DNA of 64,000 nucleotides, from assembly GCF_014203225.1 (NCBI RefSeq), contig NZ_JACHIO010000003.1, forward strand, positions 310,001-374,000. The letters run 5' to 3'. The notes beneath the pieces were generated by a model. It did not search any database and was not told the DNA's origin. It was given only the letters and a program-made list of their open reading frames with translations. Below, piece by piece: positions 632-39,615 of the stretch. The stretch is from Granulicella mallensis (GTDB taxonomy: Bacteria; Acidobacteriota; Terriglobia; Terriglobales; Acidobacteriaceae). Both the position numbers and the translations under genes were made by a program. Positions within the stretch are counted from its first letter, which is position 1, and each line of letters begins with the position of its first letter.

Positions 632-1664
632 GCTTACCTACAGTCCAACTCTCAGGCAGAAAATCATGCACGACAGTTGCATGACCTGTCTTCCTGGCAA
701 GTTCTACGGCCACGTTGCCCGCCGCCACATCCAGAATGCCCAACCCAAAAGGACTGAAGAGGAGCGGCTTGCCCGGGATGCGGACCGGTGTCTTTCCGGC
801 CAACACCGCACCCAGAGTCGTGCGGATGAAATCCCGGTTCTGCACCTGCTCGCTGGCCAGGTGGATGGAGGTCTGGTTGCTGCAAACGTGCTCCACGTCG
901 TCGACAACGTTATCTGCTTGCAAGATTGCCTCCGGCGTGAAGTCGCGCAGAGAGACATGCAAAATCACAGCATCAGACTTCACGCGATCAAGCTGGCCGA
1001 GGTATGGCGTCGTTGCCGTTGTTGCCAGGCTGACAAGATCGCTGGTGCTGAGGAGCGCACCGGAGTCTTCGGAGATGCTGAACCGTCTTCCCTCTGCCAG
1101 ATGCTGACAGCCCTCGACGAACTGAACCGCGCGTGAAGGAAGCAGGTCGAACACTTGGATGTGATCCACCTCCGGATGAACAGTGAGGAGGAATCGTAGC
1201 GTATGAAAGTTGATAAAACCGGCTCCGATCAGCCCAATGGTCCGCACGGATCCCGGGGCCTTAAAGGTCTGCGCAGCCAACGCGGCGCTGGCTGCCGTGC
1301 GATACGCGTTGATAAGCGAGCCCTCCAGAATGGCTGTCGCAAAACCCGTGTTCGGAGAGTTGAGCACCAGAACAGCAGAGGCACGGTCTTGCCCGCGTTG
1401 AAGATTGCCCGGGAACGAGGCCACCCATTTCATTCCGGCTATCGGTTGTTTCCCGCCCAGATAAGCAGGTTTGGCGATGATGCGTGCTGACGGATCGTGC
1501 GGAAAACGCAGGAATGGGCAATTCGGCAGGGACGTATCACCGGCCTCATGGGTCAGATAGGCAGCGCGTACAGCTTCGATCAGGCCCAGTTCCTGGCCTT
1601 CAAACAACACTCCAATCTCCTTTCCACGCAGCAACAAGATGTCGCCGTTGTTCAAACTTCCCAT
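621..1664 (-). CDS. sbnB: SbnB-like N-(2-amino-2-carboxyethyl)-L-glutamate dehydrogenase (2,3-diaminopropionate pathway)
   Basis: Ornithine cyclodeaminase/mu-crystallin-fold protein of the SbnB type. In the staphyloferrin B pathway SbnB oxidatively cleaves N-(2-amino-2-carboxyethyl)-L-glutamate to L-2,3-diaminopropionate and 2-oxoglutarate using NAD. Visible are the family segment AGMKWVASFPGN, the EGSLINAYRTAASAALAA stretch and the nucleotide-binding loop IGLIGAGFIN. The frame is open further upstream, but ATG 1664 is preferred because AGGAGG lies 10 nt before it; this leaves a 13-bp overlap with the sbnA stop. The pairing with an SbnA homologue makes the assignment much firmer than homology alone. 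It probably supplies Dap to the adjacent NRPS. Confidence 0.88.
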   Translation of the reverse strand: MGSLNNGDILLLRGKEIGVLFEGQELGLIEAVRAAYLTHEAGDTSLPNCPFLRFPHDPSARIIAKPAYLGGKQPIAGMKWVASFPGNLQRGQDRASAVLVLNSPNTGFATAILEGSLINAYRTAASAALAAQTFKAPGSVRTIGLIGAGFINFHTLRFLLTVHPEVDHIQVFDLLPSRAVQFVEGCQHLAEGRRFSISEDSGALLSTSDLVSLATTATTPYLGQLDRVKSDAVILHVSLRDFTPEAILQADNVVDDVEHVCSNQTSIHLASEQVQNRDFIRTTLGAVLAGKTPVRIPGKPLLFSPFGLGILDVAAGNVAVELARKTGHATVVHDFLPESWTVGKHAN

Positions 1665-2686
1665 GCCTGATCCGCCTCCTCCATCGTTAGTGAGGCATCC
1701 CCAAAGTGTTGCCCCGTCCACTCTTTGGAGAAAATGGTGTCCAGATAACGCTCGCCTCGGTCGCAGAGAATCGCGGCGCAGGTCGCGCCGTCAGGAATGC
1801 TGGCCTGATACCTGGCAATGGCAGCTACAACGGCGCCGGCAGAACCACCGGCAAAAATGGCCTCCCGGCGCAGTAGATGGAAGCACCCGCGCACGCATTC
1901 GATGTCGGAGACTTTGACGTGGTCATCTTCGAGGCCGGAGTAATACAGTTCCGGCAACCGCGAAGCTCCGTGGCCCGGGATCAGCCGCTTCTTCGGCTGG
2001 TCCCCAAAGATCACGCTGCCACAAGCATCGACGGCGACTACACGGGTCGAGAGTCCGTTCTTTCTGGCATACTCGCTGCACCCGCGGAGCGTCCCACAAG
2101 TGCTCGTTGCCACAAACAGGTAATCCAGCAGCGGAAGTTCACGGTGAATCTCCGCCATCGTCTGGTAATGCGCCTTGGCGTTGGTCAGGTTTGCGTACTG
2201 GTTTACCCAGAAGCTGTCCTTGATGGTTCGGCATAGATCCTGCACAAGCTCGATACGCGCACTGAGCAGATCGCCGGTCACGGGATGAGGCCGCTCGACC
2301 AGTCTTACATCAGCACCGTAGGCCTTCAGGACGGCAAGGTTCGTCGGCGTAATCAAGGTATCGACGACGCAGATAAATCGCAGCCCAAGGCGCGAGCACG
2401 CTTGTGCCAGACCAATCCCCAGATTGCCTGAACTGGACTCAATGATGGTGGTTTCAGGGCCGATACGTTGCTGCTCCCAGGCCTCCAACAGCATGCGCAT
2501 CGCAGTGCGGTCTTTGATGCTGCCGCCCGGGTTCAACATCTCCAGCTTTCCGTAAAGGTAGAATCGGTCTCCGAACAGCCGGTTCAAAAGCACGAGCGGA
2601 GTATTGCCGATGGCACTGAGAATACCCTCAGCTGGCGGTGGCTGATGGACCTCTTCAATCGTGGCGATACGGCTTGCTGCAATCAT
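1652..2686 (-). CDS. sbnA: SbnA-like N-(2-amino-2-carboxyethyl)-L-glutamate synthase (PLP)
   Basis: Cysteine synthase-fold PLP enzyme, 344 residues, usual length for SbnA. SbnA condenses O-phospho-L-serine with L-glutamate; SbnB then releases L-2,3-diaminopropionate. Visible features are the substrate motif GNTPLV near residue 27, the PLP lysine K58 in PGGSIKDR, the ESSSGNLGIGLAQ segment and the glycine-rich phosphate loop TSTCGTLRG. A GGAGGGG ribosome site precedes ATG 2686. It sits 78 bp behind the MbtH-like gene and overlaps sbnB, forming one leftward operon. A plain cysteine synthase is the alternative, but the sbnB partner and the NRPS context argue against that. Confidence 0.9.
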   Translation of the reverse strand: MIAASRIATIEEVHQPPPAEGILSAIGNTPLVLLNRLFGDRFYLYGKLEMLNPGGSIKDRTAMRMLLEAWEQQRIGPETTIIESSSGNLGIGLAQACSRLGLRFICVVDTLITPTNLAVLKAYGADVRLVERPHPVTGDLLSARIELVQDLCRTIKDSFWVNQYANLTNAKAHYQTMAEIHRELPLLDYLFVATSTCGTLRGCSEYARKNGLSTRVVAVDACGSVIFGDQPKKRLIPGHGASRLPELYYSGLEDDHVKVSDIECVRGCFHLLRREAIFAGGSAGAVVAAIARYQASIPDGATCAAILCDRGERYLDTIFSKEWTGQHFGDASLTMEEADQAWEV

Positions 2687-3111: not shown

Positions 3112-3837
3112 ATGTATAGGCTCGTGCTAAATCTACCACAAGAGTTCCGGCAATTCGTCCTGTTCGATCTTCCCAGCCATGAGGCCATGGTCGACGGGAT
3201 TCGCATCGTCTGGTTCCAAAGAGATGTACCGGAGCCTGTTTGCAAGCCGCTCGCGCATCTTTTGAGCAGGCAGGAGCGGGAGCGCGCCGACAGTATGGTA
3301 TTTGCGGCCGACCGTCACTCTTTCATTTGGGTACACGCCTGCAAACGCGCCCTGCTGGCTGAATACGTCGGCATGAAGCCCTCGCAGTTGGAATTCATGC
3401 ACAACGCGCAAGGTAAACCCTTTCTCGTAGGATCCGACCTGCAGTTCAGCCTGTCGCATGCAGGCTCCTATGCCGTGATAGCGCTGGTTCGAGGCCGTCG
3501 GCTGGGAGTGGATATCGAGCCCATCCGACGCTTAGAGGACGCGATGGGCCTTGCCCGCCGCTTCTTTTCTGAGAAAGAAGCAGAGCGGCTGCGAGACCTC
3601 GAAGGAACCCCCGACTTTGGCCTGGCATTCTTCGAATGCTGGACCCGGAAAGAGGCCTTTATCAAAGCGCTCGGTGGAGGTCTGTCCATCCCTCTCAACG
3701 GGTTTGAGGTGAGCTTCCATCCGTCCCCCAACCCGGATCTGCGCGGCATCTCCGTGGCCACCGATGGATGGATACTGCATGATCTGAAGCTGGTGGATGG
3801 CCATGCAGCCGCCCTGGTAGCTGAAGTTTTCAGTTGA
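3112..3837 (+). CDS. Sfp-type 4'-phosphopantetheinyl transferase
   Basis: Moves the phosphopantetheine arm of CoA onto the serine of carrier domains. The protein has 241 residues, typical for the Sfp group. The two signature blocks are present: GVDIE with D134/E136 for Mg-CoA binding, and the F-F-E-C-W-T-R-K-E-A block at 173-182 (W-x-x-K-E-A). An upstream FSLSHAG motif (about 112-118) matches the CoA-phosphate contact region. It is the obvious activator of the three carrier domains in this cluster. ATG 3112 has no clear ribosome site; ATG 3187 (residue 26) is an alternative start. Confidence 0.92.
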   Translation: MYRLVLNLPQEFRQFVLFDLPSHEAMVDGIRIVWFQRDVPEPVCKPLAHLLSRQERERADSMVFAADRHSFIWVHACKRALLAEYVGMKPSQLEFMHNAQGKPFLVGSDLQFSLSHAGSYAVIALVRGRRLGVDIEPIRRLEDAMGLARRFFSEKEAERLRDLEGTPDFGLAFFECWTRKEAFIKALGGGLSIPLNGFEVSFHPSPNPDLRGISVATDGWILHDLKLVDGHAAALVAEVFS

Positions 3838-3992: not shown

Positions 3993-4089
3993 CGAACGAT
4001 CACCCCACAGTGTCGTATTCACTGGGTCTACGCACCTTACCTCGCCCTCTAACCTGCTTTCATGCCGGAAGCGTAAAGGAGCGGTGCGT

Positions 4090-7000
4090 ATGAGCAGCGT
4101 CCCTGCAATCTCCGAGCTCACAGCACAAGCTAAACGGCAGTTGCTGAAGGATCTCCTGCGCAAACGCCTCGGAGAGGAGGACGGTTGGTTCCCACTCTCA
4201 CCCTCGCAGGAGGCGCTCTGGTTTTTATGGAAGCTGGCTGAGGAAAAGGGCACCTACCATATCGCTGTACCTGTCGGCATCCGTGGCCCGCTGGATGTTG
4301 CCGTCTTTGAGCGCTGCTGGCAAACATTGATCGACAGGCACCTGGGGCTACGACTGCAGTTTGCAGAGCGCGATGGAAAGCCGATGCAGCGTTCGATCCA
4401 TAACCATCGTTTTGTCCTGCGTCACATCGATGCCAGCTCGTGGACCGAGGAGCAACTGGCCAACGAGATGCGAAGTGAGTACGTTCGCCGAATCGATCTT
4501 GAGGCGAGCGCCTCTCCCTCTGTCATCCTCTACAAGCGCAAGCCGGGAGAAGCAGTACTGCTGATCGTCCTGCATCATATCGCCGGCGATCTATGGTCAT
4601 TGATCGTAACGATGGACGAGCTGCGCATCCTCTACGACGCGGAACAGAATGGCAGACGCGCCGAGTTGCCGCCGCCTGCCATTACGCTTCAACACGCAAT
4701 CGAATGGCAGGCCCGGCAACTTTCATCTTCGGCCGGCGACAGGCTGCGCCAGTACTGGCAGCAGGAGCTCCAGGGAGATCTGCCCTTGCTGGACCTGCCG
4801 ACGGACCGCCCTCGGCCGTTACAGCGTTCGTTTGCAGGATCCATGTATCTGCAAACAATGGATGCGGAGTTAGCTGCCGATCTTCAGCGCCTTGCGGCAG
4901 ACAACGGTGTGACCTTGTTCTCTGCCCTCCTCGCTGCCTACCTGACGCTTCTGCACCGCTTCAGCGGGCAGCAAACCGTCATTGCGGGAACACCTGTCGC
5001 AGGACGCTCGCGCAAGGAACTGGAGCCTCTGGTCGGTGACATGGTCAACATGGTTCCGCTGCGGGCCGAGTTCGACGGCAACCCAACCTTCCGTGACCTG
5101 CTGAAACAGATGCGGAGCCGCGTGACTGGAGCCATCGCGCATGGGGACTTTCCCTTTTCACTCATGCTGCCTTTGCTGGAGCAGCCGATGGATCGCAATC
5201 GCACGCCGGTCTTCCAGACGATGTTTGTGCTGCAGCGTTTCCAGCGCTATCCGGATTTCAGCCGCTCCATGCTTCCCACCGAAGATATATCGCCGATTCC
5301 ATTTGCCGGCCTTGAGTTGATACCTATGCTGTTTGCGCAGCAGGAGGGCCAGTACGACCTAAGCCTGGAGATGAAGCAGGACGAGCAGGGGAGGCTCATT
5401 GGCGGCTGGAGGTACTCCACCAGCCTATTCGACCTGGAAACCATTCAGCGGCTCGCAGCGCACTTTGTAACGCTGCTGCGGGGTGTCGTATCAGACCCCG
5501 GACTGCCCGTCGCCTCGTACGCTCTGATGACGCCGGACGAAACCGAACGCTTCTTGCAGGACGGGCGAGGCGCTACTAGGGAACTGCCTGCAGAGAAGAC
5601 CGTTTGCGAGCTATTTCTGAAGCAGGCACATCTGACTCCGAACGCCATTGCCCTGTGTGTTGGCGAGAGAATCCTCACGTATGCGGAGTTGGAGAAGGAA
5701 GTAGATCGGCTGGCACGCCGGATTCATGGATTGCAGCTGCCGCCTGGCTTCCTGATGCCCATCCTGCTTCCGCGCGGAGTGGAGTTCATCACAGCCATTC
5801 TCGCGATCCATCGCGCCGGTGGCGCGTTCCTTCCCATGGATCCCCGTCACCCCATGGCCAGGACAGCCGGCATCGTAACGGAGGGTGGAACACCTGTCGT
5901 TCTTACGACAGCCGGCATCCGCACCGAGCTGCAAGCGGAGTTACGAACCTACCCTGAGGCGCTGCGCTGTCGCTTGCTTACCCTCGAAGAACTGCCGCAG
6001 CCGGAGCCGACTCTACCGGATGTGCCAGCGAACGGACTGGCCTATGTGATGTTTACCTCCGGCTCCACGGGCAAGCCCAAGGGCGTCATGGTGGAGCATC
6101 GCGGCATGATCAACCATGTGCTCGGCAAATTGCAGGACCTCGGCATCACCGCCATGGACCGTGTGGCTCAGACCGGGCCGCAGTCCTTTGACATTGTGGT
6201 GTGGCAGTGCGTGGCACCTCTGGTCGCAGGTGCATCGGTGTGGGTCTTCACGGACGACGAAGCAGAGAATCCGCACACGCTGCTGGAGCGCTCCCGGGAC
6301 AACAGAATCACCGTGCTGCAATTGGTGCCGTCGATGCTCACGGCGTTACTCGATGAGGCTGAGAGCGCCGCCACATCGGCGGCGTCACTTCAGCAGCTGC
6401 GCTGGATGGTGCCTACCGGGGATGCATTTCCTACCGTGCTCGCAGAGCGCTGGCTTGCGCTGTTCCCGCACGTTCCCCTGCTGAACACCTACGGCTCCAC
6501 GGAGTGTTCAGATGACCAGTGCCACTACGCGTTGGATCGACTGGAGGGCTCGGACCTCGCGGTGCCTGTGGTCTCCATCGGAACCCCCATCGCCAACATG
6601 ACGGCCTATGTCCTGGACGGGGCTCTACGTCCGGTTCCCGTGGGCGTCGCCGGCGAACTCTACATTGGCGGCGCGGGCGTGGGGCGAGGCTACGCAGGAC
6701 AGCCGGAGTTGACGGCACAATCGTTTCTGCCAGACCCTTTCAGCACGACGTCCGGCGCACGGCTGTACCGGACGCGCGACCGTGTACGCCGCCGCCCGGA
6801 TGGACGAATCGACTTCATGGGCCGCAATGACCATGTCATTAAACTGCAAGGGCTACGCATCGAGCCTCGCGAGATCGAGGCGGTCATGGTGCGGCATCCG
6901 GATGTATTGCAGGCAGCAGTCCTGTTGCTGCATGACCCATGGCGGCAGCCTCGCCTGACTGGCTACTACACCGGAACAGCCACAAGCGAGAGCCTGTTGC

Positions 7001-7458
7001 GTTGGCTGGCAGAGCATCTGCCGCAGTCCATGATTCCTTCAGTGCTGTGTTCGCTGGCTCAGCTCCCAATGAACTCCAGCGGCAAGCTCGATCGCAAGCA
7101 ACTGCCGGAGCCGGACTGGGGCAGCACCGGGCAGATGGATGTCATCGCACCTCAAACCCCCGCGGAACAAGCACTCTATGATATCTGGCAGGCCGTGCTC
7201 GGGCGGTCTGACTTTGGCACAACGCATGATTTCTTTGCCGTAGGCGGGGACTCTATCCGCAGTATTCAGGTAGTGTCACGCGCCCGCTCTGCCCAATACG
7301 TCTTTCAGGTCTCTGACATCTTCATCCACCGCACTATCGGCGCACTCGCTAGGGTTGCGAAGACAGCGATGCCCATCGAGACGCATGAACTGCCGGCAAT
7401 CCAGGCTGCCGATCTTGCAACCGCGCTGCAACAGGTTCAATTTGACGAGGAAGACTGA
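4090..7458 (+). CDS. Nonribosomal peptide synthetase, module 1 (C-A-T)
   Basis: A three-domain module of about 1120 residues. The condensation domain (about 35-440) has HHIAGD near residue 162. The adenylation domain (about 470-970) has TSGSTGKPKG near 654, NTYGSTE, and NSSGKLDRK. The carrier domain carries its serine in FFAVGGDSI near 1054. The A7 box reads YRTRD instead of YRTGD. By hand alignment to GrsA the specificity residues read D-I-W-Q-V-T-T-D-D-K; the two acidic residues at 330/331 could suit a side-chain amine such as Dap. ATG 4090 is chosen because AAGGAG lies 8 nt upstream. Its stop overlaps the next start (TGATG). A leading C domain fits N-acylation by the FAAL-loaded chain. Confidence 0.93.
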   Translation: MSSVPAISELTAQAKRQLLKDLLRKRLGEEDGWFPLSPSQEALWFLWKLAEEKGTYHIAVPVGIRGPLDVAVFERCWQTLIDRHLGLRLQFAERDGKPMQRSIHNHRFVLRHIDASSWTEEQLANEMRSEYVRRIDLEASASPSVILYKRKPGEAVLLIVLHHIAGDLWSLIVTMDELRILYDAEQNGRRAELPPPAITLQHAIEWQARQLSSSAGDRLRQYWQQELQGDLPLLDLPTDRPRPLQRSFAGSMYLQTMDAELAADLQRLAADNGVTLFSALLAAYLTLLHRFSGQQTVIAGTPVAGRSRKELEPLVGDMVNMVPLRAEFDGNPTFRDLLKQMRSRVTGAIAHGDFPFSLMLPLLEQPMDRNRTPVFQTMFVLQRFQRYPDFSRSMLPTEDISPIPFAGLELIPMLFAQQEGQYDLSLEMKQDEQGRLIGGWRYSTSLFDLETIQRLAAHFVTLLRGVVSDPGLPVASYALMTPDETERFLQDGRGATRELPAEKTVCELFLKQAHLTPNAIALCVGERILTYAELEKEVDRLARRIHGLQLPPGFLMPILLPRGVEFITAILAIHRAGGAFLPMDPRHPMARTAGIVTEGGTPVVLTTAGIRTELQAELRTYPEALRCRLLTLEELPQPEPTLPDVPANGLAYVMFTSGSTGKPKGVMVEHRGMINHVLGKLQDLGITAMDRVAQTGPQSFDIVVWQCVAPLVAGASVWVFTDDEAENPHTLLERSRDNRITVLQLVPSMLTALLDEAESAATSAASLQQLRWMVPTGDAFPTVLAERWLALFPHVPLLNTYGSTECSDDQCHYALDRLEGSDLAVPVVSIGTPIANMTAYVLDGALRPVPVGVAGELYIGGAGVGRGYAGQPELTAQSFLPDPFSTTSGARLYRTRDRVRRRPDGRIDFMGRNDHVIKLQGLRIEPREIEAVMVRHPDVLQAAVLLLHDPWRQPRLTGYYTGTATSESLLRWLAEHLPQSMIPSVLCSLAQLPMNSSGKLDRKQLPEPDWGSTGQMDVIAPQTPAEQALYDIWQAVLGRSDFGTTHDFFAVGGDSIRSIQVVSRARSAQYVFQVSDIFIHRTIGALARVAKTAMPIETHELPAIQAADLATALQQVQFDEED

Positions 7459-10400
7459 TGCCGCCATCTGGAGTACCTGAGGTTTATCCACTGTCGTTCA
7501 TGCAAGAAGCGATGCTCTTCCAGTGCCTGCAGGCACCGGGTTCAGACATTTACGTGCAGCAGCTCTCGTGCGAACTAGCCGGGCCCCTCCGCGAAGCGGA
7601 CTTCACGGATGCCTGGGCTCGATTGATCGACCGTCACGCCGTCCTGCGCACCGCGTTTGCCTGGAAGGACCTTCCTGAACCGCTGCAAATCGTAGGCAAG
7701 GTTCGTGTGCCATTAGAGACGCTGGACTGGACAGAGATGGAGTCTGCACAGCAACGGGACTCTCTGCAGGAGCTGCTGGCGAATATACGCGCCACCGGAT
7801 TCCAGATGCACAAGGCCCCGTTGCACAAGCTGCACCTCATCCGCCTTGCCGCCGACCACTATCATCTGGTTTGGACCTGGCACCACATCCTGCTGGACGC
7901 ATGGTCTGTGCCCGTCATCTTTCGTGAGTTCTTCACGCTGTATGACGGACACTCGCTGCCGTCGTCGCCGGCATTTCGGGACTTCATCGCGTGGCAGCGC
8001 AGCCGTGATCTCGCCAGGGCGGAGGATTACTGGCGCACCTATCTGGATGGCTTTACCCGTGCGACTCCGTTGGGGTTGGACCGAGAGTCCACGGGTGACA
8101 CGGGCTACATCCTGCAGTACGAGCTTCTGTCTGCGCAGGAGGCGCAGGCCATTCAGGATGCGGCAGCGGCACTCAAGGTGAGTGTATTTACGCTTCTGCA
8201 AGGCGCATGGACACTGCTGCTCAGCCGCTACAGCGGCACAGAGGATGTACTCTTCGGAACAGCTGTCTCGGGCCGACAGGCAGAGTTGCTGCACATCGAG
8301 GAGATGTCCGGGCTACTAATCAACACCATTCCTGTGCGTTGCCGCATTGTCAACGAAGAGACCGTGTCGGACTGGTTGACCCGCTTGCAGCGGCAGCAGT
8401 ATGAGACGCAGGCGTTTGATTACGTCCCATTGCGCAAGACGCAACAGTGGAGCGCCATACCTTCCGGCGCCCCTCTGTTGGAAAGCATGCTGATCCTGGA
8501 GAACGTGCCGCTGCATAACGCGACATTCGGTGGACAAGACCTGGGTCTGGGACAGATCTCTTTCACAGAGCGAGGAGAGTTTCCGCTGACGGTCATGATG
8601 TCTCTGGAGAGACAGCCACGACTCGGTATCGGGCTGCAGCGCAACCGCTTCTCCGATGGGGATGCCACCCTTATTCTGCGCCAGCTGCGCTTTGTCCTGC
8701 AGCAGTTGGTAGAGCACACAGAAGCTACCGTGCGTCAGATCGACATCTTCACACCCACGGAACGGGCGGACCTCGTCTCGTCCGGCCGTCCCGAGCGCGA
8801 TCTTAACCTGCAATCCGCCGCGGCATTGTTTGACCGGCAGGCCGAGCGGACTCCGTACGCTACGGCGGCCGTGTTCCGCGCAGAGTCCGGCGACGAATTC
8901 ATGTGGACCTACCGGCAGTTGCAGCGCCGGTCGCGACAGTATAGTAGCGGTTTGCTGCAACGGGGCCTGCGGCGTGGGAATCGCGTCGCCATCTGTGCGG
9001 ATGCCTCTTTAGACCGTCTTGCGGCGATTTTGGCCATCTTGCGCGCTGGCGCCGTGTACCTTCCACTCGACCCGGAGATGCCTTCGGCCTTGCTGCAGGA
9101 TCTACTAAGCGATGCCACGCCTGCACTGATTTTGACAACGGTCGATCTGGCCGCAGAGTTTGCGCCATCCAACAACTGCGAAACACTCCTTCTCGAAGGC
9201 GCCTTCCGCGAAGTGGAACCGATACACGAGGAAGCGGAAGTAAGCCCGCAGGATCTTGCTTACCTGATCTATACCTCGGGCTCGACCGGCCGGCGCAAAG
9301 CCGTGGCTGTCACGCATGCATCGTTGCAGTCCCTGGTCGAGACCCAGATCGCAGCCTTCCGGATTGACCGGCAGAGCCGTGTTCTGCAGTTCTCATCGCT
9401 CAGTTTCGACGCATCGATCTCCGAGATCTTTACTGCGCTGTTAGCCGGTGCTGCTTTATACATCGCGCCGCGTCGCCTACTGCTTCCCTCCCGCGAGTTC
9501 CTTGAGCTGCTCGCCGAGTGCCGGATCACAACCGTGACGCTCCCCCCCTCTGTACTGGCTGCCCTGCCCTACACGGTCCTGCCCAGCCTGCAGACCCTGG
9601 TCTCAGCCGGGGAAGCATGCCGCTCTGAACTGGTGGAGCGCTGGAGTCACGGAAGGCTTTTCCTGAATGCCTATGGACCTACTGAATGCACGGTATGCGC
9701 CACCTTCGGAGAGGCCAGACGGGGAGTAGTCAATCCATCCATCGGGCGTCCCTGTGATGATGTTCAGGTGTACCTATTGGATGATGCCCTGGAGCCGGTT
9801 CCCAGCGGCGTTCCCGGGCACATGTACCTGGGCGGGCGTCAGGTCAGTGGCGGGTACTGGAATCGCCCTGAGCTCACGGCCTCGGCCTTTCTTCCCGATC
9901 CCTTCTTCCCTCGTCCCGGCGCGCGGATGTATCGCACCGGCGATCTTGCCCGCTTACTGCCTACCGGAGAGCTCGCCTACCTCGGTCGTGCGGACGAGCA
10001 GGTGAAGGTGCGCGGAATCCGCATGGAGCCGGGAGAGGTCGTCTCGGCCATCCTGCAGGATCCCACTCTGAGCGAGGCCGCCGTCATCGCCATCGAGGAC
10101 GCCGACACGGGCACCGCGCTTGCGGCCTATGTTGTCCCCAGAATCACACCCTCCAGCGGCGCCGGGGAAACAGGCTGGTGGCCATCGCTCGCCGAATATC
10201 TGATCTATGACGGCCTTGCGTACCATGCGATGACCAGCGATGAGCGGCGCAACGAAAGCTACCGCGCCGCAATTCGTCAACACGTACCGGGGAAGGTCGT
10301 GCTGGAGGTGGGCACAGGGCCTGAGGCGCTGCTTGCACGCTTCTGCATTGAGGCCGGCGCCAGCAAGGTATACGCCGTCGAACTGCTGGAGGAGACCTTT

Positions 10401-11819
10401 CGCCAGGCACAACGCCGCGTGCATGAACTCGGCCTCGAAGACCGCATCTTCCTGGTGCACGGCGATGCGACGAAGGTGGAGTTACCCGAGCCCTGCACGG
10501 TGTGCGTTTCGGAGATTGTCGGAGCTCTGGGAGGATGCGAGGGCGCAGCGGTCATCCTGAACAGCGTGCGCCGGTTGCTCACGCCCGATGCCGTGATGAT
10601 CCCGATCCGTAGCCGCACACTGATTGCACCGGTGGAATTGCCGGAGGCACTGCGCGGCAGACTAGGATTCGGAGAACTCGCGGCCAGCTACGTGGAACGT
10701 ATCTTTGCCGATGCCGGACGCCCGTTTGATCTGCGGCTGGCGGCCAGGGGACTTCGCTACCCATCCTTGCTCGCTGAACCGCGGATGCTGGAAGATCTCG
10801 ACTTCAGCGCTATGACCTCTACCAACGAGACATACGACGCGAACTTCGCGATCGACCGGCCAGGGCGCATGGACGGCTTCGTCGCGTGGCTGATGCTCGA
10901 TACCGGCGCAGGCGAGGAAATCGACATCCTCGCACACGATCACTGCTGGCTTCCCGTGTTCTTCCCGTTGCCAACCGATCCGGTGAAGGTGAAAGAGGGA
11001 GATTCCGTCACAGCTAAAGCTGGCTTCACCTTGAACCACGACGGCCTCCATCCGGATTACTTTGTTCATGGGCAGATCGAGTCCTCGGACGGCACTGTCA
11101 TAGAGTTCCGCTATGACGCACCGCACGATCCCAGAAAGTTCAAGGCAACGCCCTTTACGCAGCATTTCTTCCATGATGCTGACATACCTCGTACAGAGGC
11201 GATGAGCTTCAATCCTGCGCTATTGCAACAGCGTCTGCATCAGTCTCTGCCTGCATACATGGTCCCGGAATCGTTTGTGGTGCTGGACCACCTGCCGCGC
11301 ACGCTGAGCGGAAAGCTTGATCGAAAGGCGCTGCCTAAGCCGGTATCGTCACACACTGCGGTAAAGATCTCCCGTGGCATGACGCCACGCAATCAAACAG
11401 AGCAGGAGGTCGTCTCGATCTGGCGCGATGTACTCCGTCTGGACGAGATCGACCTGCAAACCAGCTTCTTCCAGCATGGCGGAAGTTCCCTATTGCTGCT
11501 CCGAGTACAGACGGAGATCCAGCGCAGGCTCGGTGTCGAACTGCCTGCGACAGATCTCTTCCGCTACCCCACTGTAGAGACTCTGGCCCAGCACCTGCAC
11601 GAACGTATCCCGGTCCAGGGAACAGATCTTATAACGCCTGTATCGACCGAGAAGAGGCTTTCCGCCCGGCGAGACATGATCGCACTCAAGTCTGTGCTCA
11701 AGGACCGGCTGAAGGTTCCACTGAAGTCGGCATTCAAGGACCCGCTGAAAACGGTACTCCACTCGGCTGCAGCCCATCCTTCGCCGGAGCCCGAAGAAGC
11801 ACCTGATGTCGGGGCATGA
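7458..11819 (+). CDS. Nonribosomal peptide synthetase, module 2 (C-A interrupted by PRMT-like methyltransferase-T)
   Basis: About 1453 residues. The condensation domain starts at the N-terminus (HHILLD near 141). The A domain has TSGSTGRRK near 605, NAYGPTE, YRTGDL and QVKVRGIRMEPGE. Between A8 and A10 (about 890-1250) sits a methyltransferase: SAM loop VLEVGTGPEALL near 948, acidic post-I strand KVYAVEL, a double-E loop SEIVGALGGCE near 1017-1026, and a barrel with HDHCW near 1160. A10 (SGKLDRK) resumes near 1283 and the carrier serine is in HGGSS near 1342. The code reads D-A-S-T-V-A-A-V-C-K, an aromatic Phe/Tyr-type pocket. After the carrier domain comes a Lys/Leu-rich tail and no release domain. 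Confidence 0.92.
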   Translation: MPPSGVPEVYPLSFMQEAMLFQCLQAPGSDIYVQQLSCELAGPLREADFTDAWARLIDRHAVLRTAFAWKDLPEPLQIVGKVRVPLETLDWTEMESAQQRDSLQELLANIRATGFQMHKAPLHKLHLIRLAADHYHLVWTWHHILLDAWSVPVIFREFFTLYDGHSLPSSPAFRDFIAWQRSRDLARAEDYWRTYLDGFTRATPLGLDRESTGDTGYILQYELLSAQEAQAIQDAAAALKVSVFTLLQGAWTLLLSRYSGTEDVLFGTAVSGRQAELLHIEEMSGLLINTIPVRCRIVNEETVSDWLTRLQRQQYETQAFDYVPLRKTQQWSAIPSGAPLLESMLILENVPLHNATFGGQDLGLGQISFTERGEFPLTVMMSLERQPRLGIGLQRNRFSDGDATLILRQLRFVLQQLVEHTEATVRQIDIFTPTERADLVSSGRPERDLNLQSAAALFDRQAERTPYATAAVFRAESGDEFMWTYRQLQRRSRQYSSGLLQRGLRRGNRVAICADASLDRLAAILAILRAGAVYLPLDPEMPSALLQDLLSDATPALILTTVDLAAEFAPSNNCETLLLEGAFREVEPIHEEAEVSPQDLAYLIYTSGSTGRRKAVAVTHASLQSLVETQIAAFRIDRQSRVLQFSSLSFDASISEIFTALLAGAALYIAPRRLLLPSREFLELLAECRITTVTLPPSVLAALPYTVLPSLQTLVSAGEACRSELVERWSHGRLFLNAYGPTECTVCATFGEARRGVVNPSIGRPCDDVQVYLLDDALEPVPSGVPGHMYLGGRQVSGGYWNRPELTASAFLPDPFFPRPGARMYRTGDLARLLPTGELAYLGRADEQVKVRGIRMEPGEVVSAILQDPTLSEAAVIAIEDADTGTALAAYVVPRITPSSGAGETGWWPSLAEYLIYDGLAYHAMTSDERRNESYRAAIRQHVPGKVVLEVGTGPEALLARFCIEAGASKVYAVELLEETFRQAQRRVHELGLEDRIFLVHGDATKVELPEPCTVCVSEIVGALGGCEGAAVILNSVRRLLTPDAVMIPIRSRTLIAPVELPEALRGRLGFGELAASYVERIFADAGRPFDLRLAARGLRYPSLLAEPRMLEDLDFSAMTSTNETYDANFAIDRPGRMDGFVAWLMLDTGAGEEIDILAHDHCWLPVFFPLPTDPVKVKEGDSVTAKAGFTLNHDGLHPDYFVHGQIESSDGTVIEFRYDAPHDPRKFKATPFTQHFFHDADIPRTEAMSFNPALLQQRLHQSLPAYMVPESFVVLDHLPRTLSGKLDRKALPKPVSSHTAVKISRGMTPRNQTEQEVVSIWRDVLRLDEIDLQTSFFQHGGSSLLLLRVQTEIQRRLGVELPATDLFRYPTVETLAQHLHERIPVQGTDLITPVSTEKRLSARRDMIALKSVLKDRLKVPLKSAFKDPLKTVLHSAAAHPSPEPEEAPDVGA

Positions 11820-13251: not shown

Positions 13252-16200
13252 CTAGTTGTTGTTGTCAGCCCCACCGGTAAGTTCAGCCAGCAACCGGTCT
13301 ACCTCGTCTTCGGGCATCTCGCTGATGCTCGCCAGCGCAGCCAGATCGTCTCGGATGGGAGCCACGCTGCACGACGTTGCGCTGCTGGATGGCTGCGTAT
13401 TCGAAGCCTTCGCCGGTGTGAGTGTTGCGACGTATTCCGACAGTTGCCCGATCGTCGGGTAGTCCCACACGGCTGTTGTGGAGATGCCGACGCCGAGCCA
13501 GGCCTCCAGCGCATTGGAGAATCGAAGAGCAGAGACCGAATCCAGGCCATACTGACTGATGCGATCTTTCACGCTGATCGTGGCGCGATCGCGTCCAAAC
13601 TCCTTGCAGACCCAGTCAGAGATCCAGTTCACATAACGCTGTGTATCGGAATGTTCTTCGTTGTTTGCCTTGGCTGGAGTGGCCGCAGAGGAAGAGATCG
13701 ACGTCTCCACCGCTGCCGAAGCCGTCCCAGGCTTTCGGAGGAGAGGATCGATATTCCAGTCTTCACTGGCCATCGTCTGCTCCACGTCACCGATCTCACG
13801 AACATATTCGTTGATGACGTCCTCAGCCTGCACGGCATTCAGATACACGGCCTCGGACGGTGTCACACCCAGCGCGCTTGCGATGCACTGGTCAAGTCGC
13901 AGCCGCGTCCACTCCTCGGCACGGCTTAATGCCGCAGAGGGCTCTTTCTGCGCCCGGTAGCGAATGCTTGCGAGCAGAAGGCCCTGCACGCCGACCTCGC
14001 CGGCCAGGCTGTTGGCCCAGTTCTGAGCAGCGACGCGGTCGGCTCCCATGGGAAGCCGAGTGCTCTGCGTACGGTCTGCGATCCGTGCAGCCGTCACCTG
14101 CAACTCGGCTGCAATCGCTTGTTGATGAAGAACGTTGCGGAGAAAGCTCTCCAGCGGAGCGCTGTCATTGATCAGCTTCGAGCCGATATACGCAGTCATT
14201 GGTTCCGTTGGCCCCTCGAAGATGCGCAGGATGCGCGCATCGCGGAGAATCTGCGGAGCGATATTGCTCTCGATGTAACCGCGGCCGGCCATCTGCTGGA
14301 CGAGCCCATCCGCAGCCTTCCAGGCAAACTCCGGTCCGGCCACCTTGCAGGCGCAGAAGAACTCCGGGGGAACAGGCTCATTCGCATCCATCAACCCGGC
14401 CACCACGATAGCCAGGGATTCGACCGCGGTAACTGCGGCAGTCAGATCGCTGATACGGGTAAGCGTAACCGGATTCTCGATCACCCGGCCGGTTGCGATA
14501 TGGCGCGCCTTGCCGTGGCGCAGCATCAACTGCAGGCAACGCTTCAATACCCCAACACTTGCCCAGCAGAGAGCATAACGGCCGTATTCCATCGCATCCA
14601 TTGCCACGGTCATGCCATTCCCGGGGGTTCCGAGCATGTCATCGGCCGTGACCTTCACACCTTCAAGATGCACTTCGTTCTGCACCATCGCGCGCAGGCC
14701 CATCGTCAGCGCCTCCGGCCCCATGCGCAATCCACGGCTTCCCTGGCGTACCGTGAAGGCAGTGACTCCGCGAGGACCGTTCGTGTCACCTGGTTCAAGC
14801 TGAACGAAGGTATTGATATAGCCGGCCCAGGAAGAGGTGCCGCTCCAGATCTTCGTCCCGTAGAGTTCCCAACCTCCAGGAGCAGGCACTCCTCTGGAAC
14901 TGATGCCGCGCACATTCGAACCCGCGCCAGGTTCGGTCATCGCAAAAGCGATCAGCTCGCGTCCCTGCGCGAGGACCGGCAGCAGCTCCTCCTGCCGCTT
15001 CGGCGTTGCATGGCGCAGGATGGGGCGGACTCCCAGGACATTGTTCACAGCGGTGAAGGATGCAATTGTGAGGTCGATAGCGGCGAGCTGCTGCAGCACC
15101 AGACCGGTACTTAAGTGGTTCAACGCCAGGCCACCGTAGCGCACAGGCGCCTGCATGCCCAGAACGCCGTGATTCGCCAGATCCATCACGATATAGGGTG
15201 GAATCGAGCGCCGCTCATCCATCAAGCGCGAGTTGATGCGCTCCTCGGCATAGTCCCTTAACCAGTCCAGGGTCTCCTGGAGCTTCTGTGTTCCAGCCGT
15301 ATCTTCCATGTTTCTTTCCTCCTCTGCATTGGAAACATTCACTACTTGTGCGGACTGCCATTGACTGCGCCACTGCGGGGTAATCCAGGTATGAAGCGAA
15401 TCGAGCGCACCGTCCAGGAACATGCGGCGGCAAAGCTGGCGCTGTTTCTTTCCGCTGTGTGTGCGCGGAAGATGTCTGGGCCTCAGCAGGACAATCGCAG
15501 CCACTTCAAGCCCATGCTGCTCGGACACAGCCGATACCACATCCGCTGCAATCGCATCGGGATCCAGGGTACGCATGGCGATGCGCTGCACCTCAACGGC
15601 CAACGCCAGGCGCAGCTCCCCACCAATCTCCAGGGAGAAGACACAGCATCCGTCCCGAGCCAGCGATGGATGCGCGATTTCAATATCCGGCTCGACATCC
15701 TCTGGGTGAATATTGACGCCGCGCACGATGAACATATCGTCGATGCGCCCGCGAACGTACAACTCGCCGTTGTACATCATCCCTAGATCGCCGGTGCGCA
15801 GATAAGGACCGTCACCGCTCGGCTGCAGGTGTGCCTCAAAACGCTTCAAAAGCTCAGGGTGCTTCCAATAACCCGCAGTCACAGAGGGGCCCTTCAGGCA
15901 TATCTCTCCGGATTGCCCCTCAGGCAACTCCTCCTGCGTGAACGAGTCGGCGATCCGAACTTCTGTGCCTGGAACCGGCACACCCGACGAGGTCAGCCGG
16001 ACTCCGCCATCAGCTTCAGTCGGGACAAAGAGCCCTGTAGTTAAATGCTCCGCATCCGCAGAAAGGATGCGAGGCAGATGGCCAAGCGCTGTGGTCGTTG
16101 CAGCCAGCGTGTTCTCGGCCAGTCCATAGCCTGGACAGAAGGCCTCCGGAGCAAAACCGTATGGAACGTACTTTGCCAGGAACCGCTCTACCGTGTCCGG

Positions 16201-17112
16201 GCGAACATGTTCTGCCCCGTTGATCGCGGTCACAATACTGCTCAGGTCCAGGCCCTTCAGTTGCTCGTCAGGAATCTGGGTGCAGGCTTCAAAGGCAAAG
16301 TTCGGGGCCGCCGTGTGGGTCGCCTTATACGTCGACATTCCCTCCAGCCAGCTGAGCGGGCGCTGCGCGAACATACCTGGCGCCATCATGATGCATTCGC
16401 ACCCGCAGTACAGAGCCTCCAGCAGCCCCAGCACTAATCCCATGTCATGAAAGTGCGGCAGCCAGGTAAAGACCCGGCTCTCCTGATAAAACCTCCGCTG
16501 CTGTTGTAGTGCATAGCAATTCGCCACTACGTGACGGTGCTGCAGCACCACCCCCTTGGGAGTTGACGTCGAGCCGGAGGTGTACTGCAGATAGGCGACA
16601 TCTTCGGCCGTGCAGCCAGGGTCTTGCCACTCAGGTGCGCTCTCCGGGAGGTCTTCCTCCTGCATGGCCAGCCAGGTAACGGAAGGCAGAGCCGCGGTCA
16701 GGATAGGCTGCATCTCGATCGTCGTCAGGCCAAAACGCGCGCCGCTGTCTGCTGCGAGAGTTGCTGTATGGTGCTGAGGACGACGAGGGTTCGGGTAGCG
16801 CGTGGGAACCCCGATAGCTCCGGCATACATGCAACCAAAGAAGGCCGTCAGGAAGTCCAGACCGGCGGGAAAGACCAGCATGACGCAGGGCTGCTCCGTG
16901 GGCTGCGGAAGCCCTGTAGCCCGCAGGCGGGCGGCAACGCGGCGCGCACCACGATCCAGTTCCGCAAAGGTGCGCCCACGCGGTCGCGCCTCTCCGTCAA
17001 GAAAGGTATAGCCGCGCTCCGGACTCAGTTGTGCACGCAGACGTAGCAGCTGCGCAAGCGTCAGTCGGTTCGTTTGAATCTCGGCGTGTGAACGATCCTG
17101 TGGACTTGTCAT
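13252..17112 (-). CDS. Fused fatty acyl-AMP ligase / acyl-CoA dehydrogenase / acyl carrier protein
   Basis: About 1286 residues in three parts. Residues 1-585 are a fatty acyl-AMP ligase: TSGSTSTPKG near 180 and the FAAL-typical WLPHFHDMG near 220. Residues about 600-1110 are an acyl-CoA dehydrogenase: the FAMTEPGAGSNV flavin/substrate loop and RIFEGPTEP near 966, which keeps the catalytic glutamate. The carrier domain carries its serine in GLDSVSAL near 1191. Such fusions activate a free fatty acid, load it on the carrier and introduce an alpha,beta double bond. It probably gives the starter acyl chain to NRPS module 1. ATG 17112 is preferred over an upstream TTG. Confidence 0.93.
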   Translation of the reverse strand: MTSPQDRSHAEIQTNRLTLAQLLRLRAQLSPERGYTFLDGEARPRGRTFAELDRGARRVAARLRATGLPQPTEQPCVMLVFPAGLDFLTAFFGCMYAGAIGVPTRYPNPRRPQHHTATLAADSGARFGLTTIEMQPILTAALPSVTWLAMQEEDLPESAPEWQDPGCTAEDVAYLQYTSGSTSTPKGVVLQHRHVVANCYALQQQRRFYQESRVFTWLPHFHDMGLVLGLLEALYCGCECIMMAPGMFAQRPLSWLEGMSTYKATHTAAPNFAFEACTQIPDEQLKGLDLSSIVTAINGAEHVRPDTVERFLAKYVPYGFAPEAFCPGYGLAENTLAATTTALGHLPRILSADAEHLTTGLFVPTEADGGVRLTSSGVPVPGTEVRIADSFTQEELPEGQSGEICLKGPSVTAGYWKHPELLKRFEAHLQPSGDGPYLRTGDLGMMYNGELYVRGRIDDMFIVRGVNIHPEDVEPDIEIAHPSLARDGCCVFSLEIGGELRLALAVEVQRIAMRTLDPDAIAADVVSAVSEQHGLEVAAIVLLRPRHLPRTHSGKKQRQLCRRMFLDGALDSLHTWITPQWRSQWQSAQVVNVSNAEEERNMEDTAGTQKLQETLDWLRDYAEERINSRLMDERRSIPPYIVMDLANHGVLGMQAPVRYGGLALNHLSTGLVLQQLAAIDLTIASFTAVNNVLGVRPILRHATPKRQEELLPVLAQGRELIAFAMTEPGAGSNVRGISSRGVPAPGGWELYGTKIWSGTSSWAGYINTFVQLEPGDTNGPRGVTAFTVRQGSRGLRMGPEALTMGLRAMVQNEVHLEGVKVTADDMLGTPGNGMTVAMDAMEYGRYALCWASVGVLKRCLQLMLRHGKARHIATGRVIENPVTLTRISDLTAAVTAVESLAIVVAGLMDANEPVPPEFFCACKVAGPEFAWKAADGLVQQMAGRGYIESNIAPQILRDARILRIFEGPTEPMTAYIGSKLINDSAPLESFLRNVLHQQAIAAELQVTAARIADRTQSTRLPMGADRVAAQNWANSLAGEVGVQGLLLASIRYRAQKEPSAALSRAEEWTRLRLDQCIASALGVTPSEAVYLNAVQAEDVINEYVREIGDVEQTMASEDWNIDPLLRKPGTASAAVETSISSSAATPAKANNEEHSDTQRYVNWISDWVCKEFGRDRATISVKDRISQYGLDSVSALRFSNALEAWLGVGISTTAVWDYPTIGQLSEYVATLTPAKASNTQPSSSATSCSVAPIRDDLAALASISEMPEDEVDRLLAELTGGADNNN

Positions 17113-17213
17113 TGATCTGCGGGGCAATCGCCCGGCATCATCCTCACGATATTTTGTCGGACGACTTCGTTATCTTCTGCCGGAGCGGTGCTTCCTCTCT
17201 TTCCTGGAAAATA

Positions 17214-18296: not shown

Positions 18297-19208
18297 CTAA
18301 AGCTCGTAAGGGTAGAAGCCTTCACCGCTCTTGCGACCGTTGCGTCCTGCGTAAACCATCTTACGGAGCAGCGGGCAGGGGCGATATTTGCTGTCGTTCA
18401 GTTCTGCATAAATCACCTCTAGCGATCGCAGAACCGTATCGAGTCCAATAAGGTCTGCAGTCTCCAGGGGGCCCATCTTATGGCCAAAGCATGTTTTGAA
18501 CAGGCGGTCGACGTCCTGCGCGGACGCTACATTTTCGTGGACGAGAAACATCGCCTCATTCACCATCAGCATCATCACGCGATTCGTCACAAACCCGGGA
18601 GAATCGTTGACGATAATGCTCTCGCGGCCGGCCTGGCGAAGAAGCTGGATGCCCTTATCAAGCACCTCTGCCGAGGTGCGATCCCCTCGTATGACTTCCA
18701 CAAGCGGCATCAGGGGCACGGGATTCATGAAGTGCATCCCTAAAACGCGCTCCGGATGCTCGTACAACGAACCAAAACGCGTAATGGGGATTGCTGAAGT
18801 GTTCGCTGCAACCGGAACGTGCGGCGCCAGCACCCGGTTCAGCTCCTCGTGAACGATACGCTTCAGATCCCAATCTTCCGTGATGTTTTCGATCACGAAG
18901 TCCGCCTCTGCGACACCGGCCAGATCCTCTGCGACCGTAAGATAGTCGATCGGCGAGATCGCCTGCGGATCTTTGCGCAGGAGGTTGTAAAGTTTGGCGT
19001 TCTTGCGAATGGTGGTAGTAGCGCGATCTAATTGGGCACGCGTATTGTCGACAAGCAGCACCTTGTGGCCGCTCTGCGCGAAAAGGTGCGCGACTCCAGA
19101 TCCGATAACGCCGGCACCGATAACGGCGACGCGATTAAACGTTCCTTCGCCCCTTCCAGCAGCCGATTCGTGCTCTGCATAGGCAAAGGCTGACACTGGT
19201 TCCTTCAT
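18297..19208 (-). CDS. 3-hydroxyacyl-CoA dehydrogenase family protein
   Basis: A 303-residue member of the 3-hydroxybutyryl-CoA dehydrogenase family. The NAD-binding loop GAGVIGSG lies at about 31-38. Family segments follow: NTSAIPI, the MHFMNPVPLMPLVEV block with the catalytic histidine, and the C-terminal DLIGLDT and YAGRNGRKSGEGFY. It is the first gene of the four-gene leftward operon and ends 13 bp before the LLM oxidoreductase. The natural reaction is oxidation of a 3-hydroxyacyl thioester to the 3-keto form. In this cluster it may act on the carrier-bound acyl chain, but no enoyl hydratase is seen here. Confidence 0.88.
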   Translation of the reverse strand: MKEPVSAFAYAEHESAAGRGEGTFNRVAVIGAGVIGSGVAHLFAQSGHKVLLVDNTRAQLDRATTTIRKNAKLYNLLRKDPQAISPIDYLTVAEDLAGVAEADFVIENITEDWDLKRIVHEELNRVLAPHVPVAANTSAIPITRFGSLYEHPERVLGMHFMNPVPLMPLVEVIRGDRTSAEVLDKGIQLLRQAGRESIIVNDSPGFVTNRVMMLMVNEAMFLVHENVASAQDVDRLFKTCFGHKMGPLETADLIGLDTVLRSLEVIYAELNDSKYRPCPLLRKMVYAGRNGRKSGEGFYPYEL

Positions 19209-37198: not shown

Positions 37199-37250
37199 TG
37201 TCGTTTATCACAATAAATGTCGCATTTTTATCACGCTCTTTGTCGTATCC
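37199..37250 (+). repeat. Left end of the TniA/TniB element
   Basis: Three TGTCG sites at 37199, 37218 and 37241, separated by A/T-rich TTTATCAC blocks. It matches the inverted right end (40555-40604) in layout and the orphan copy at 21641 in sequence. The five bases before it (TTGAT) do not repeat after 40604, so no target duplication is visible. Confidence 0.85.
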
Positions 37251-37258
37251 TTCGAGGC

Positions 37259-39614: not shown

Positions 39615-39615
39615 A

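What the first reader, a model, noticed from the sequence alone, without database searches (positions are those of the whole stretch)
10160..11220. PRMT-like methyltransferase inserted into an NRPS adenylation domain
The insert between A8 and A10 in the second NRPS protein looks like a complete protein arginine methyltransferase-type enzyme, not the usual NRPS N-methyltransferase. The Rossmann SAM loop is VLEVGTGPEALL; the double-E loop SE-I-V-G-A-L-G-G-C-E has its two Glu nine residues apart, as in PRMT1; a later HDHCW stands where PRMTs have the THW loop and leads into a barrel-like segment. The A core motifs continue on either side, so it is an interrupted A domain. I cannot recall a characterised PRMT-type insert of this kind, but I could not search.
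Basis: partly seen in the sequence, partly recalled or inferred. Interest (0 to 1): 0.8.

Follow-up and report, generated by a model that had tools for sequence, protein, structure and literature searches.

The report
PRMT-fold tyrosine O-methyltransferase in an NRPS
A bacterial peptide-building enzyme carries, spliced into its tyrosine-selecting domain, a methyl-adding module shaped like the enzymes that methylate arginine on proteins; it most likely puts a methyl group on tyrosine's oxygen, as in a few known marine natural products.

Summary
Window ORF 7458-11819 (1453 aa) is C-A-T with about 340 extra residues (about 10170-11192) between adenylation motifs A8 and A9. The insert is PRMT-like by sequence (best PDB hit PRMT6, 1.3e-17) and by predicted fold (pLDDT 92.4; the 50 best matches shown are PRMTs, Z up to 28.9 over about 290 residues). 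It does not align with a TioS-type N-methyltransferase insert from a related cluster. Both double-E glutamates are kept in 79 of 87 relatives; a His directly before the Trp of the THW loop is in none.

It is not a lone oddity: a genome scan confirmed 149 related loci (80 kept and studied). The host A domain's code is DASTVAAVC. Tyr-type codes occur in 40 of 65 insert-bearing A domains against 7 of 87 other A domains in the same loci. One relative is AprJ, the O-methyl-tyrosine module of apratoxin; another fits didemnin's last module. Best reading: an embedded tyrosine O-methyltransferase of PRMT descent. The lyngbyapeptin paper already notes such an insert, so this is a new member of a little-described known kind.

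New lead: 12 relatives carry it in A domains with DVE-type codes, mostly near arginine codes; those may methylate arginine.

The parts
7458..11819 (+). NRPS2, 1453 aa: C - A(1-8) - PRMT-like insert - A(9-10) - T; no thioesterase found
   Evidence: ORF; Pfam; motif positions
7479..8777 (+). condensation domain (HHILLDAWS in place of HHxxxDG)
   Evidence: Pfam Condensation 4.1e-78, residues 8-440; motif position
8829..10040 (+). adenylation domain, N-terminal part through motif A8; 9-residue code DASTVAAVC (Tyr type)
   Evidence: Pfam AMP-binding 3e-77; code extraction; the assignment of this code to Tyr is recalled, and supported by AprJ, annotated A(Tyr), whose code here is the same
10044..10142 (+). 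first part of AMP-binding C-terminal subdomain, before the insert
   Evidence: Pfam AMP-binding_C, best stretch residues 863-895
10170..11192 (+). PRMT-fold methyltransferase insert (Rossmann SAM domain plus beta-barrel), proposed tyrosine O-methyltransferase
   Evidence: phmmer PRMT6 1.3e-17; AF2 pLDDT 92.4, pTM 0.90; Foldseek and VIA best matches PRMT
10299..10334 (+). SAM-binding motif I VLEVGTGPEALL
   Evidence: V948, G952, G954 in 87 of 87 rows
10509..10541 (+). double-E loop SEIVGALGGCE (Glu 1019, Glu 1028)
   Evidence: both Glu in 79 of 87 rows
10935..10949 (+). HDHCW at the place of the PRMT THW loop; Trp kept, no His directly before it (His 1162 is one residue earlier)
   Evidence: W1164 in 87 of 87; residue 1163 is C, S or A in 81 of 87 and never H; H1162 in 38 of 87
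11247..11336 (+). A9-A10 motifs LPAYMVP...SGKLDRKALP, completing the A domain
11403..11597 (+). thiolation (carrier) domain
   Evidence: Pfam PP-binding 4.3e-17, residues 1316-1380
4084..7458 (+). NRPS1, C-A-T, code DIWQVTTDD; probably activates 2,3-diaminopropionate (inferred)
   Evidence: Pfam; code; counterparts with DVWQVTTDD or DIWQVTTDD in four of the five loci L039-L043, next to the same insert-bearing NRPS (L042's counterpart is broken up in the BLAST hits and gave no code)
621..1721 (-). SbnB-type 2,3-diaminopropionate biosynthesis enzyme
   Evidence: NCBIfam TIGR03944, 385.9 bits, cut-off 326.9
1652..2686 (-). SbnA-type 2,3-diaminopropionate biosynthesis enzyme
   Evidence: NCBIfam TIGR03945, 407.1 bits, cut-off 349.95
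3112..3837 (+). 4'-phosphopantetheinyl transferase
   Evidence: Pfam ACPS 3.7e-19
13252..17127 (-). acyl-AMP ligase - acyl-CoA dehydrogenase - carrier protein, probable starter loading (inferred)
   Evidence: Pfam; its ACAD-carrier part has counterparts beside NRPS1 in L039, L040, L042 and L043
17214..18284 (-). luciferase-like monooxygenase, nearest NCBIfam model MupA/Atu3671 family (103.5 bits, below its cut-off of 244.45)
18297..19208 (-). 3-hydroxyacyl-CoA dehydrogenase-like
   Evidence: 62% identical stretch in L041
11981..13234 (-). threonine-synthase-like PLP enzyme next to NRPS2
   Evidence: NCBIfam NF006050, 304.6 bits, cut-off 303

Best explanation
The insert is a SAM-dependent methyltransferase of PRMT descent, built into the tyrosine-activating A domain of NRPS2. 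The A domain adenylates L-tyrosine and loads it on the T domain. The insert then methylates the phenol oxygen of the carrier-bound residue, giving O-methyl-L-tyrosine, which is passed on (probably after Dap from NRPS1) to the PKS and the terminal NRPS-TE that lie upstream of the window. Shown by computation: PRMT homology and predicted PRMT fold, the A8-A9 insertion site, A and T motifs on both sides, the code DASTVAAVC, wide distribution, association with codes of that type, and co-linearity in AprJ and a didemnin-like module. Inferred: the substrate, the methylated atom, the timing on the carrier protein, and use of the double-E pair to position or deprotonate the hydroxyl.
For: Sequence: PRMT6 at 1.3e-17; profile's best PDB hit a plant PRMT, 9.9e-25. 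Fold: AF2 pLDDT 92.4; best Foldseek match PRMT6 1.7e-25, TM 0.69-0.74; VIA Z 28.9, rmsd 2.6, 290 aligned to PRMT2, model residues 18-329. Code: DASTVAAVC; Tyr-type code in 40 of 65 insert-bearing A domains against 7 of 87 other A domains in the same loci, Fisher p 1e-12 (rows are related, so p is nominal). Function by co-linearity: L054 (Moorena bouillonii PNG) is a 2960-aa open frame C-A(DASTVAAVC)-insert-T-C-A-NMT-T. The apratoxin paper's AprJ is 2955 aa, 'C, A(Tyr), MT, T, C, A(Ala), MT, T', predicted to add O-methyl tyrosine then N-methyl alanine (passages). The PRMT-like MT is the only MT in that O-Me-Tyr module. L085 (Tistrella mobilis pTM3) ends in C-A(DASTLAAVC)-insert-NMT-T-TE, after A domains coded DAWFLGNVV and DVQFAAQVV, which fits didemnin's Leu-Pro-N,O-dimethyl-Tyr end (codes and residue order recalled). 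LynB3: arginine-MT-like insert presumed Tyr O-MT (passages).
Against: I found no enzymology of a member of this clade: the AprJ, didemnin and LynB3 assignments are by co-linearity. 25 of 65 insert-bearing A domains have other codes, so the domain is not tied to Tyr. The kept double-E pair is the classic guanidinium clamp, so an arginine role is not excluded by sequence alone. The Tyr meaning of DASTVAAVC is recalled; two text searches found the string in no held paper. The passages I saw of two didemnin papers do not describe the terminal module, so that link is mine.
Confidence: 0.85

Rival explanations
1. The insert is a true arginine N-methyltransferase acting on a carrier-bound or peptide arginine.
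For: PRMT fold and both double-E Glu. Twelve relatives sit in A domains grouped as DVE-type, most close to arginine codes.
Against: The window's own A code is DASTVAAVC, the same as in apratoxin's O-Me-Tyr module. No His stands directly before the Trp of the THW loop (0 of 87). The window lies in a supported group of 12 rows (SH-aLRT 96) that all have Tyr-type codes.
Confidence: 0.06
2. The insert is an ordinary backbone N-methyltransferase, giving N-methyl-tyrosine.
For: Same A8-A9 site as classical N-MT inserts.
Against: BLASTP between the window insert and the N-MT of L054 finds nothing (best E 0.93). That N-MT matches the NRPS structure 5wmm at 1.7e-48 and PRMTs only weakly (best 3.6e-6). 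L057, L062, L071 and L085 carry the PRMT-like insert and a second, N-MT-like motif before A9 of the same A domain (4 of 86 rows by a simple motif), and AprJ's O-Me-Tyr module has no N-MT.
Confidence: 0.05
3. The insert is catalytically dead and structural.
For: Motif I lacks the usual third Gly (GTGPEA) and the THW His is not in its place.
Against: G952, G954, Y917, D918, Y922, R931 and Y935 are invariant in 87 of 87 rows and E975 is kept in 85; both double-E Glu are kept in 79 of 87. This fits selection on an active site.
Confidence: 0.04

Closest known systems
AprJ module 1 of apratoxin biosynthesis (Moorena bouillonii; locus L054)
   Same: C-A(code DASTVAAVC, annotated Tyr)-PRMT-like insert-T, no N-MT; 48% identity to the window insert; predicted residue is O-methyl tyrosine
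   Different: Different assembly line and phylum; the paper labels the domain only MT and its main text has no occurrence of 'arginine'
LynB3-OMT and LynB5 of lyngbyapeptin B
   Same: MT inserted in a Tyr A domain, stated to resemble arginine methyltransferases and presumed to O-methylate Tyr
   Different: Followed by a second, N-MT insert; its sequence was not fetched here, so clade membership is not tested
Terminal module that fits didemnin NRPS, Tistrella mobilis pTM3 (L085)
   Same: Code DASTLAAVC, PRMT-like insert in the A domain, 47% identity
   Different: Also carries an N-MT and a TE; the link to didemnin is by codes and recalled residue order
KtzH and ColG side-chain (Ms) O-methyltransferase inserts
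   Same: Side-chain O-methyltransferase between a8 and a9 (review passages)
   Different: Serine is the KtzH substrate; homology to the PRMT-like insert was not tested here
Protein arginine methyltransferases (PRMT1, 2, 6, 8, CARM1)
   Same: Fold, SAM site, double-E loop, Trp of THW, barrel
   Different: Embedded in an NRPS; no His directly before the Trp of THW; third Gly of motif I absent; probable substrate is carrier-bound Tyr

Membership tests
PRMT (type I/II/III arginine methyltransferase) | PRMT fold: Rossmann SAM domain followed by C-terminal beta-barrel | tested here: met
   All 50 rows shown by Foldseek and by VIA are PRMTs, Z up to 28.9 over 290 residues; predicted model
PRMT (type I/II/III arginine methyltransferase) | double-E loop, two Glu nine residues apart | tested here: met
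   E1019 and E1028; 79 of 87 rows keep both; profile alignment pairs both with a PRMT's, the pairwise one shifts the second by one
PRMT (type I/II/III arginine methyltransferase) | THW loop with active-site His directly before Trp | tested here: not met
   Trp in 87 of 87, His directly before it in 0 of 87; a His one residue earlier in 38 of 87
PRMT (type I/II/III arginine methyltransferase) | SAM motif I of form VLDVGxGxG | tested here: not met
   VLEVGTGPEA; first two Gly kept in 87 of 87; place of the third is D or E in 80 of 87
PRMT (type I/II/III arginine methyltransferase) | methylation of arginine guanidine | not testable with these tools
   A code argues for Tyr
Interrupted A domain of NRPS (Ms type) | MT inserted between A8 and A9 with A core motifs on both sides | tested here: met
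   Motif coordinates; AMP-binding_C in two stretches
Interrupted A domain of NRPS (Ms type) | side-chain O- or S-methylation of the activated residue | not testable with these tools
   Inferred from AprJ, didemnin-like and LynB3 co-linearity
Classical NRPS N-MT (Mb, TioS type) | sequence homology to N-MT inserts | tested here: not met
   No BLASTP similarity to L054's N-MT; that N-MT hits 5wmm at 1.7e-48. One N-MT was compared
Tyr-activating A domain | specificity code of Tyr type | tested here: met
   DASTVAAVC, the same nine residues as in the AprJ domain annotated A(Tyr); activity not tested

The most novel reading that the evidence does not exclude
A PRMT-lineage enzyme was captured by assembly lines and became a movable tailoring domain. 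It works mostly as a tyrosine O-methyltransferase that re-uses the double-E site on a hydroxyl. In some members (A codes such as DVEDIGAIT and DVENVGAIT, close to the Arg-only ApnA code DVEDIGAIEK; 11 of 12 fall in one 19-row group of the tree) it may have turned back to arginine, methylating the guanidine on a carrier protein: a PRMT built into an NRPS.
Probability: 0.25. Interest if true: 0.75.

Novelty: new member of a known kind. Interest (0 to 1): 0.42.

Why it matters
It gives a sequence and structural identity to a side-chain O-methyltransferase domain that, in the window, Pfam models score below threshold, so O-methyl-tyrosine residues could be predicted from genomes. It shows the PRMT fold probably used on a small molecule held by a carrier protein. 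The members in arginine-like A domains make a direct test possible of how a guanidinium site becomes a phenol site, or the reverse.

Tried and rejected
Classical N-MT reading: rejected by sequence comparison with one N-MT. Arginine methylation in the window: disfavoured by the Tyr-type code. A second copy in the own genome: none at E 0.001 or better. Plasmid collection: no near match. Code strings in the literature: DASTVAAVCK and related strings were found in no held paper, except DVENAGVV in a cyanopeptolin paper. The categorisation paper on interrupted A domains (PMC8341866) is not held, so what it says about PRMT-like inserts is unknown to me. Statements about precedent rest on searches; subscription papers are mostly missing from the library. 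Of nine papers opened I saw passages only: PMC10127204, PMC11355689, PMC3075265, PMC3252866, PMC2533009, PMC5577590, PMC10811503, PMC5311044, PMC2613160. PMC2613160, a survey of secondary-metabolite MT domains, has no occurrence of 'arginine' in its main text. PMC5577590 and PMC10811503 hold no 'pTM3' in their main text. VIA and Foldseek show only 50 rows; absence of other families there proves nothing. KtzH, ColG and LynB3 sequences were not fetched, so their clade membership is untested.

Rows and filters: the genome scan kept 80 of 149 confirmed loci; the other 69 were not seen. The set of 87 is the window, six relatives from the family and phylum searches (L002, L014-L018) and those 80; L001 and L038 were dropped as duplicates of the window and of L002; 84 rows are distinct. 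Stand-alone rows in the tree are 26 acidobacterial-phylum proteins only. The 40-of-65 count leaves out the window, hits of 330 residues or less, and two codes (DAWTIGAVC, DGTITAEVF) that the looser 43-row grouping includes. '18 rows without A domain' means no A hit over 100 bits within 120 residues upstream; some of these are cut by contig ends or have the A domain downstream. Codes of L015 and L060 are incomplete. The DVE grouping is loose: it includes L105 (DVWETGCIS) and L112 (DVEELGVVT), which fit the ApnA codes less well, and it is not one clade (4 changes).
Full report
What is there. The ORF at 7458-11819 is an NRPS of 1453 residues. Pfam finds Condensation, AMP-binding, AMP-binding_C in two stretches, and PP-binding. 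The A-domain motifs A3, A4, A5, A7, A8, A9 and A10 are present, with WTYRQLQ at the place of A1; A8 ends at residue 861 and A9 starts at 1264. About 340 residues between them are extra.

What the insert is. phmmer against the PDB ranks PRMT6 first, 1.3e-17. A profile of seven relatives has a plant PRMT, 3r0q, as best hit at 9.9e-25, and its alignment pairs both double-E Glu. The pairwise alignment to PRMT6 puts a one-residue gap between them instead. AlphaFold2 with an alignment of 46 sequences gives pLDDT 92.4 and pTM 0.90. Foldseek's 50 shown rows are all PRMTs, best 1.7e-25, TM 0.69-0.74. VIA-align gives Z 28.9, rmsd 2.6, 290 residues to PRMT2, model residues 18-329, that is Rossmann domain and barrel. 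As a control, the N-MT insert of the next module in L054 matches the NRPS structure 5wmm (1.7e-48), hits PRMTs only weakly (best 3.6e-6) and does not align with the window insert.

Distribution. The own genome has one copy. In 150 genomes drawn from the family and 396 drawn from the phylum, six further relatives at 40-49% identity lie in NRPS or PKS frames; they score 281 bits or more, the next best matches (shorter, mostly stand-alone frames) 92.4 bits or less. A scan of genome contigs confirmed 149 relatives and kept 80, from Cyanobacteriota, Pseudomonadota, Acidobacteriota, Chloroflexota, Bacteroidota and others. In a quick tree, 87 family rows and 26 stand-alone PRMT-like rows from the window's phylum fall on two sides of one branch, SH-aLRT 100; long branches meet there, so the sister group is unsure. 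The window groups with alphaproteobacterial rows L039-L043 (SH-aLRT 98). The window's own phylum is probably Acidobacteriota: inserts of two same-phylum genomes, L017 and L018, are identical to those of the acidobacterial records L107 and L103, though L014 equals L064, a record titled Acidimicrobiia.

Which residue is methylated. The nine-residue code of the host A domain is DASTVAAVC. Of 69 rows with an A domain directly upstream, 43 have Tyr-type, 12 DVE-type, 6 GFWS-type and 8 other or incomplete codes; 18 rows have no such A domain. Tyr-type codes occur in 40 of 65 insert-bearing A domains and in 7 of 87 other A domains of the same loci; the rows are related, so the p of 1e-12 is nominal. 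Locus L054 matches AprJ of apratoxin in length, order and domain content (2960-aa open frame against a 2955-aa protein), and the paper predicts O-methyl tyrosine for that module (passages read). L085 from Tistrella mobilis pTM3 is a terminal C-A(DASTLAAVC)-insert-NMT-T-TE module that follows codes DAWFLGNVV and DVQFAAQVV; this fits didemnin, whose residue order I recall. The lyngbyapeptin paper states that LynB3's first inserted MT resembles arginine methyltransferases and presumes it O-methylates Tyr (passages read). Hence tyrosine O-methylation.

Active site. Y917, D918, Y922, R931, Y935, G952 and G954 are invariant in 87 of 87; W1164 and P1166 too. Both double-E Glu are kept in 79 of 87: 42 of 43 Tyr-type, 12 of 12 DVE, 0 of 6 GFWS, 17 of 18 without A domain, 8 of 8 other. 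The residue directly before the Trp is C, S or A in 81 of 87 and never His; one residue earlier His stands in 38 of 87, 30 of them Tyr-type and none DVE. So the double-E pair is not specific for arginine substrates, if the Tyr reading holds. A role as base or hydrogen-bond partner for the hydroxyl is inference.

The cluster. NRPS1 (code DIWQVTTDD) lies directly upstream, with SbnA and SbnB type genes for 2,3-diaminopropionate. An acyl ligase-ACAD-carrier protein, a luciferase-like monooxygenase and a 3HCDH lie on the other strand. The alphaproteobacterial loci L039-L043 have counterparts of NRPS1 and NRPS2 in all five, and of the ACAD-carrier part beside them in four of five (loci are cut at 8 kb flanks). 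Their next gene, a PKS (Pfam KS-AT-KR-ACP in the two looked at; BLAST hits in all five), has a 53% identical counterpart at C3:299935-304638 of the own genome, about 5 kb before the window, next to a C-A-T-TE NRPS. A plausible chain is acyl - Dap - O-Me-Tyr - ketide - amino acid; this is inference.

Novelty. The kind is known by co-linearity in apratoxin and lyngbyapeptin, and the PRMT resemblance is in print in one sentence. What I did not find in the searches listed under Tried and rejected is a description of the PRMT-fold inserts as one family, of their several insertion sites, or of inserts in arginine-like A domains. For that last group, the core of L082's A domain matches ApnA A1 (2.7e-30), CmnG (3.1e-17) and CytC1 (1.2e-13) in the PDB. 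ApnA A1 codes such as DVEDIGAIEK go with Arg only and DVESIGVIAK with Arg and Tyr (passages). The ninth code residue is T in 8 and S in 4 of the 12, unlike either, so Arg, Tyr or mixed specificity is open there.

Noticed in passing
L018, L065, L076, L082, L086, L087, L103, L105, L106, L110, L112, L116: Twelve PRMT-like inserts sit in A domains grouped as DVE-type (DVEDIGAIT, DVENVGAIT and the like; two fit less well), most near the arginine codes of ApnA A1. Possible carrier-bound arginine methylation.
   Followed up: partly
L095, L098, L102, L108, L114, L118: A clade of six whose aligned A codes read GFWS[VAM]S[TS]G[QR], without Asp235, has lost both double-E Glu. The loss goes with an A domain that probably does not take an alpha-amino acid; the code alignment itself is less sure there.
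   Followed up: partly
L075 (protein 612-941), L081 (protein 1551-1883): Here the same PRMT-like domain interrupts the A domain near its N-terminus, just before motif A1, not at A8-A9.
   Followed up: partly
L014, L016, L055, L064, L067, L092, L093; L015: Seven long frames have no A hit directly upstream of the domain. In L014 and L016 it sits in a PKS frame ahead of a carrier domain and a KS; L055, L064, L067, L092 and L093 group with them in the tree but were not read in full. In L015 it lies after motif A10 and before T.
   Followed up: partly
L069, L074, L079, L109, L117: Stop-to-stop frames of 415-460 aa in which this family's domain stands without an NRPS, four of five in cyanobacteria.
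   Followed up: no
L122:4740-13648 (own genome C3, upstream of window): KS-AT-KR-ACP and C-A-T-TE genes that seem to complete the cluster lie about 5-14 kb upstream of the window start.
   Followed up: yes
37217-40560: Mu-type transposase with an AAA protein and a phage-type integrase next to each other, a likely mobile element.
   Followed up: no
56658-57953: 431-aa ORF with a marginal Condensation-domain match (30.5 bits, cut-off 30.6), away from the NRPS genes.
   Followed up: no
L064 and L014: L064, titled an Acidimicrobiia MAG, has an insert identical to L014 from a genome of the window's own phylum; one label may be wrong.
   Followed up: no
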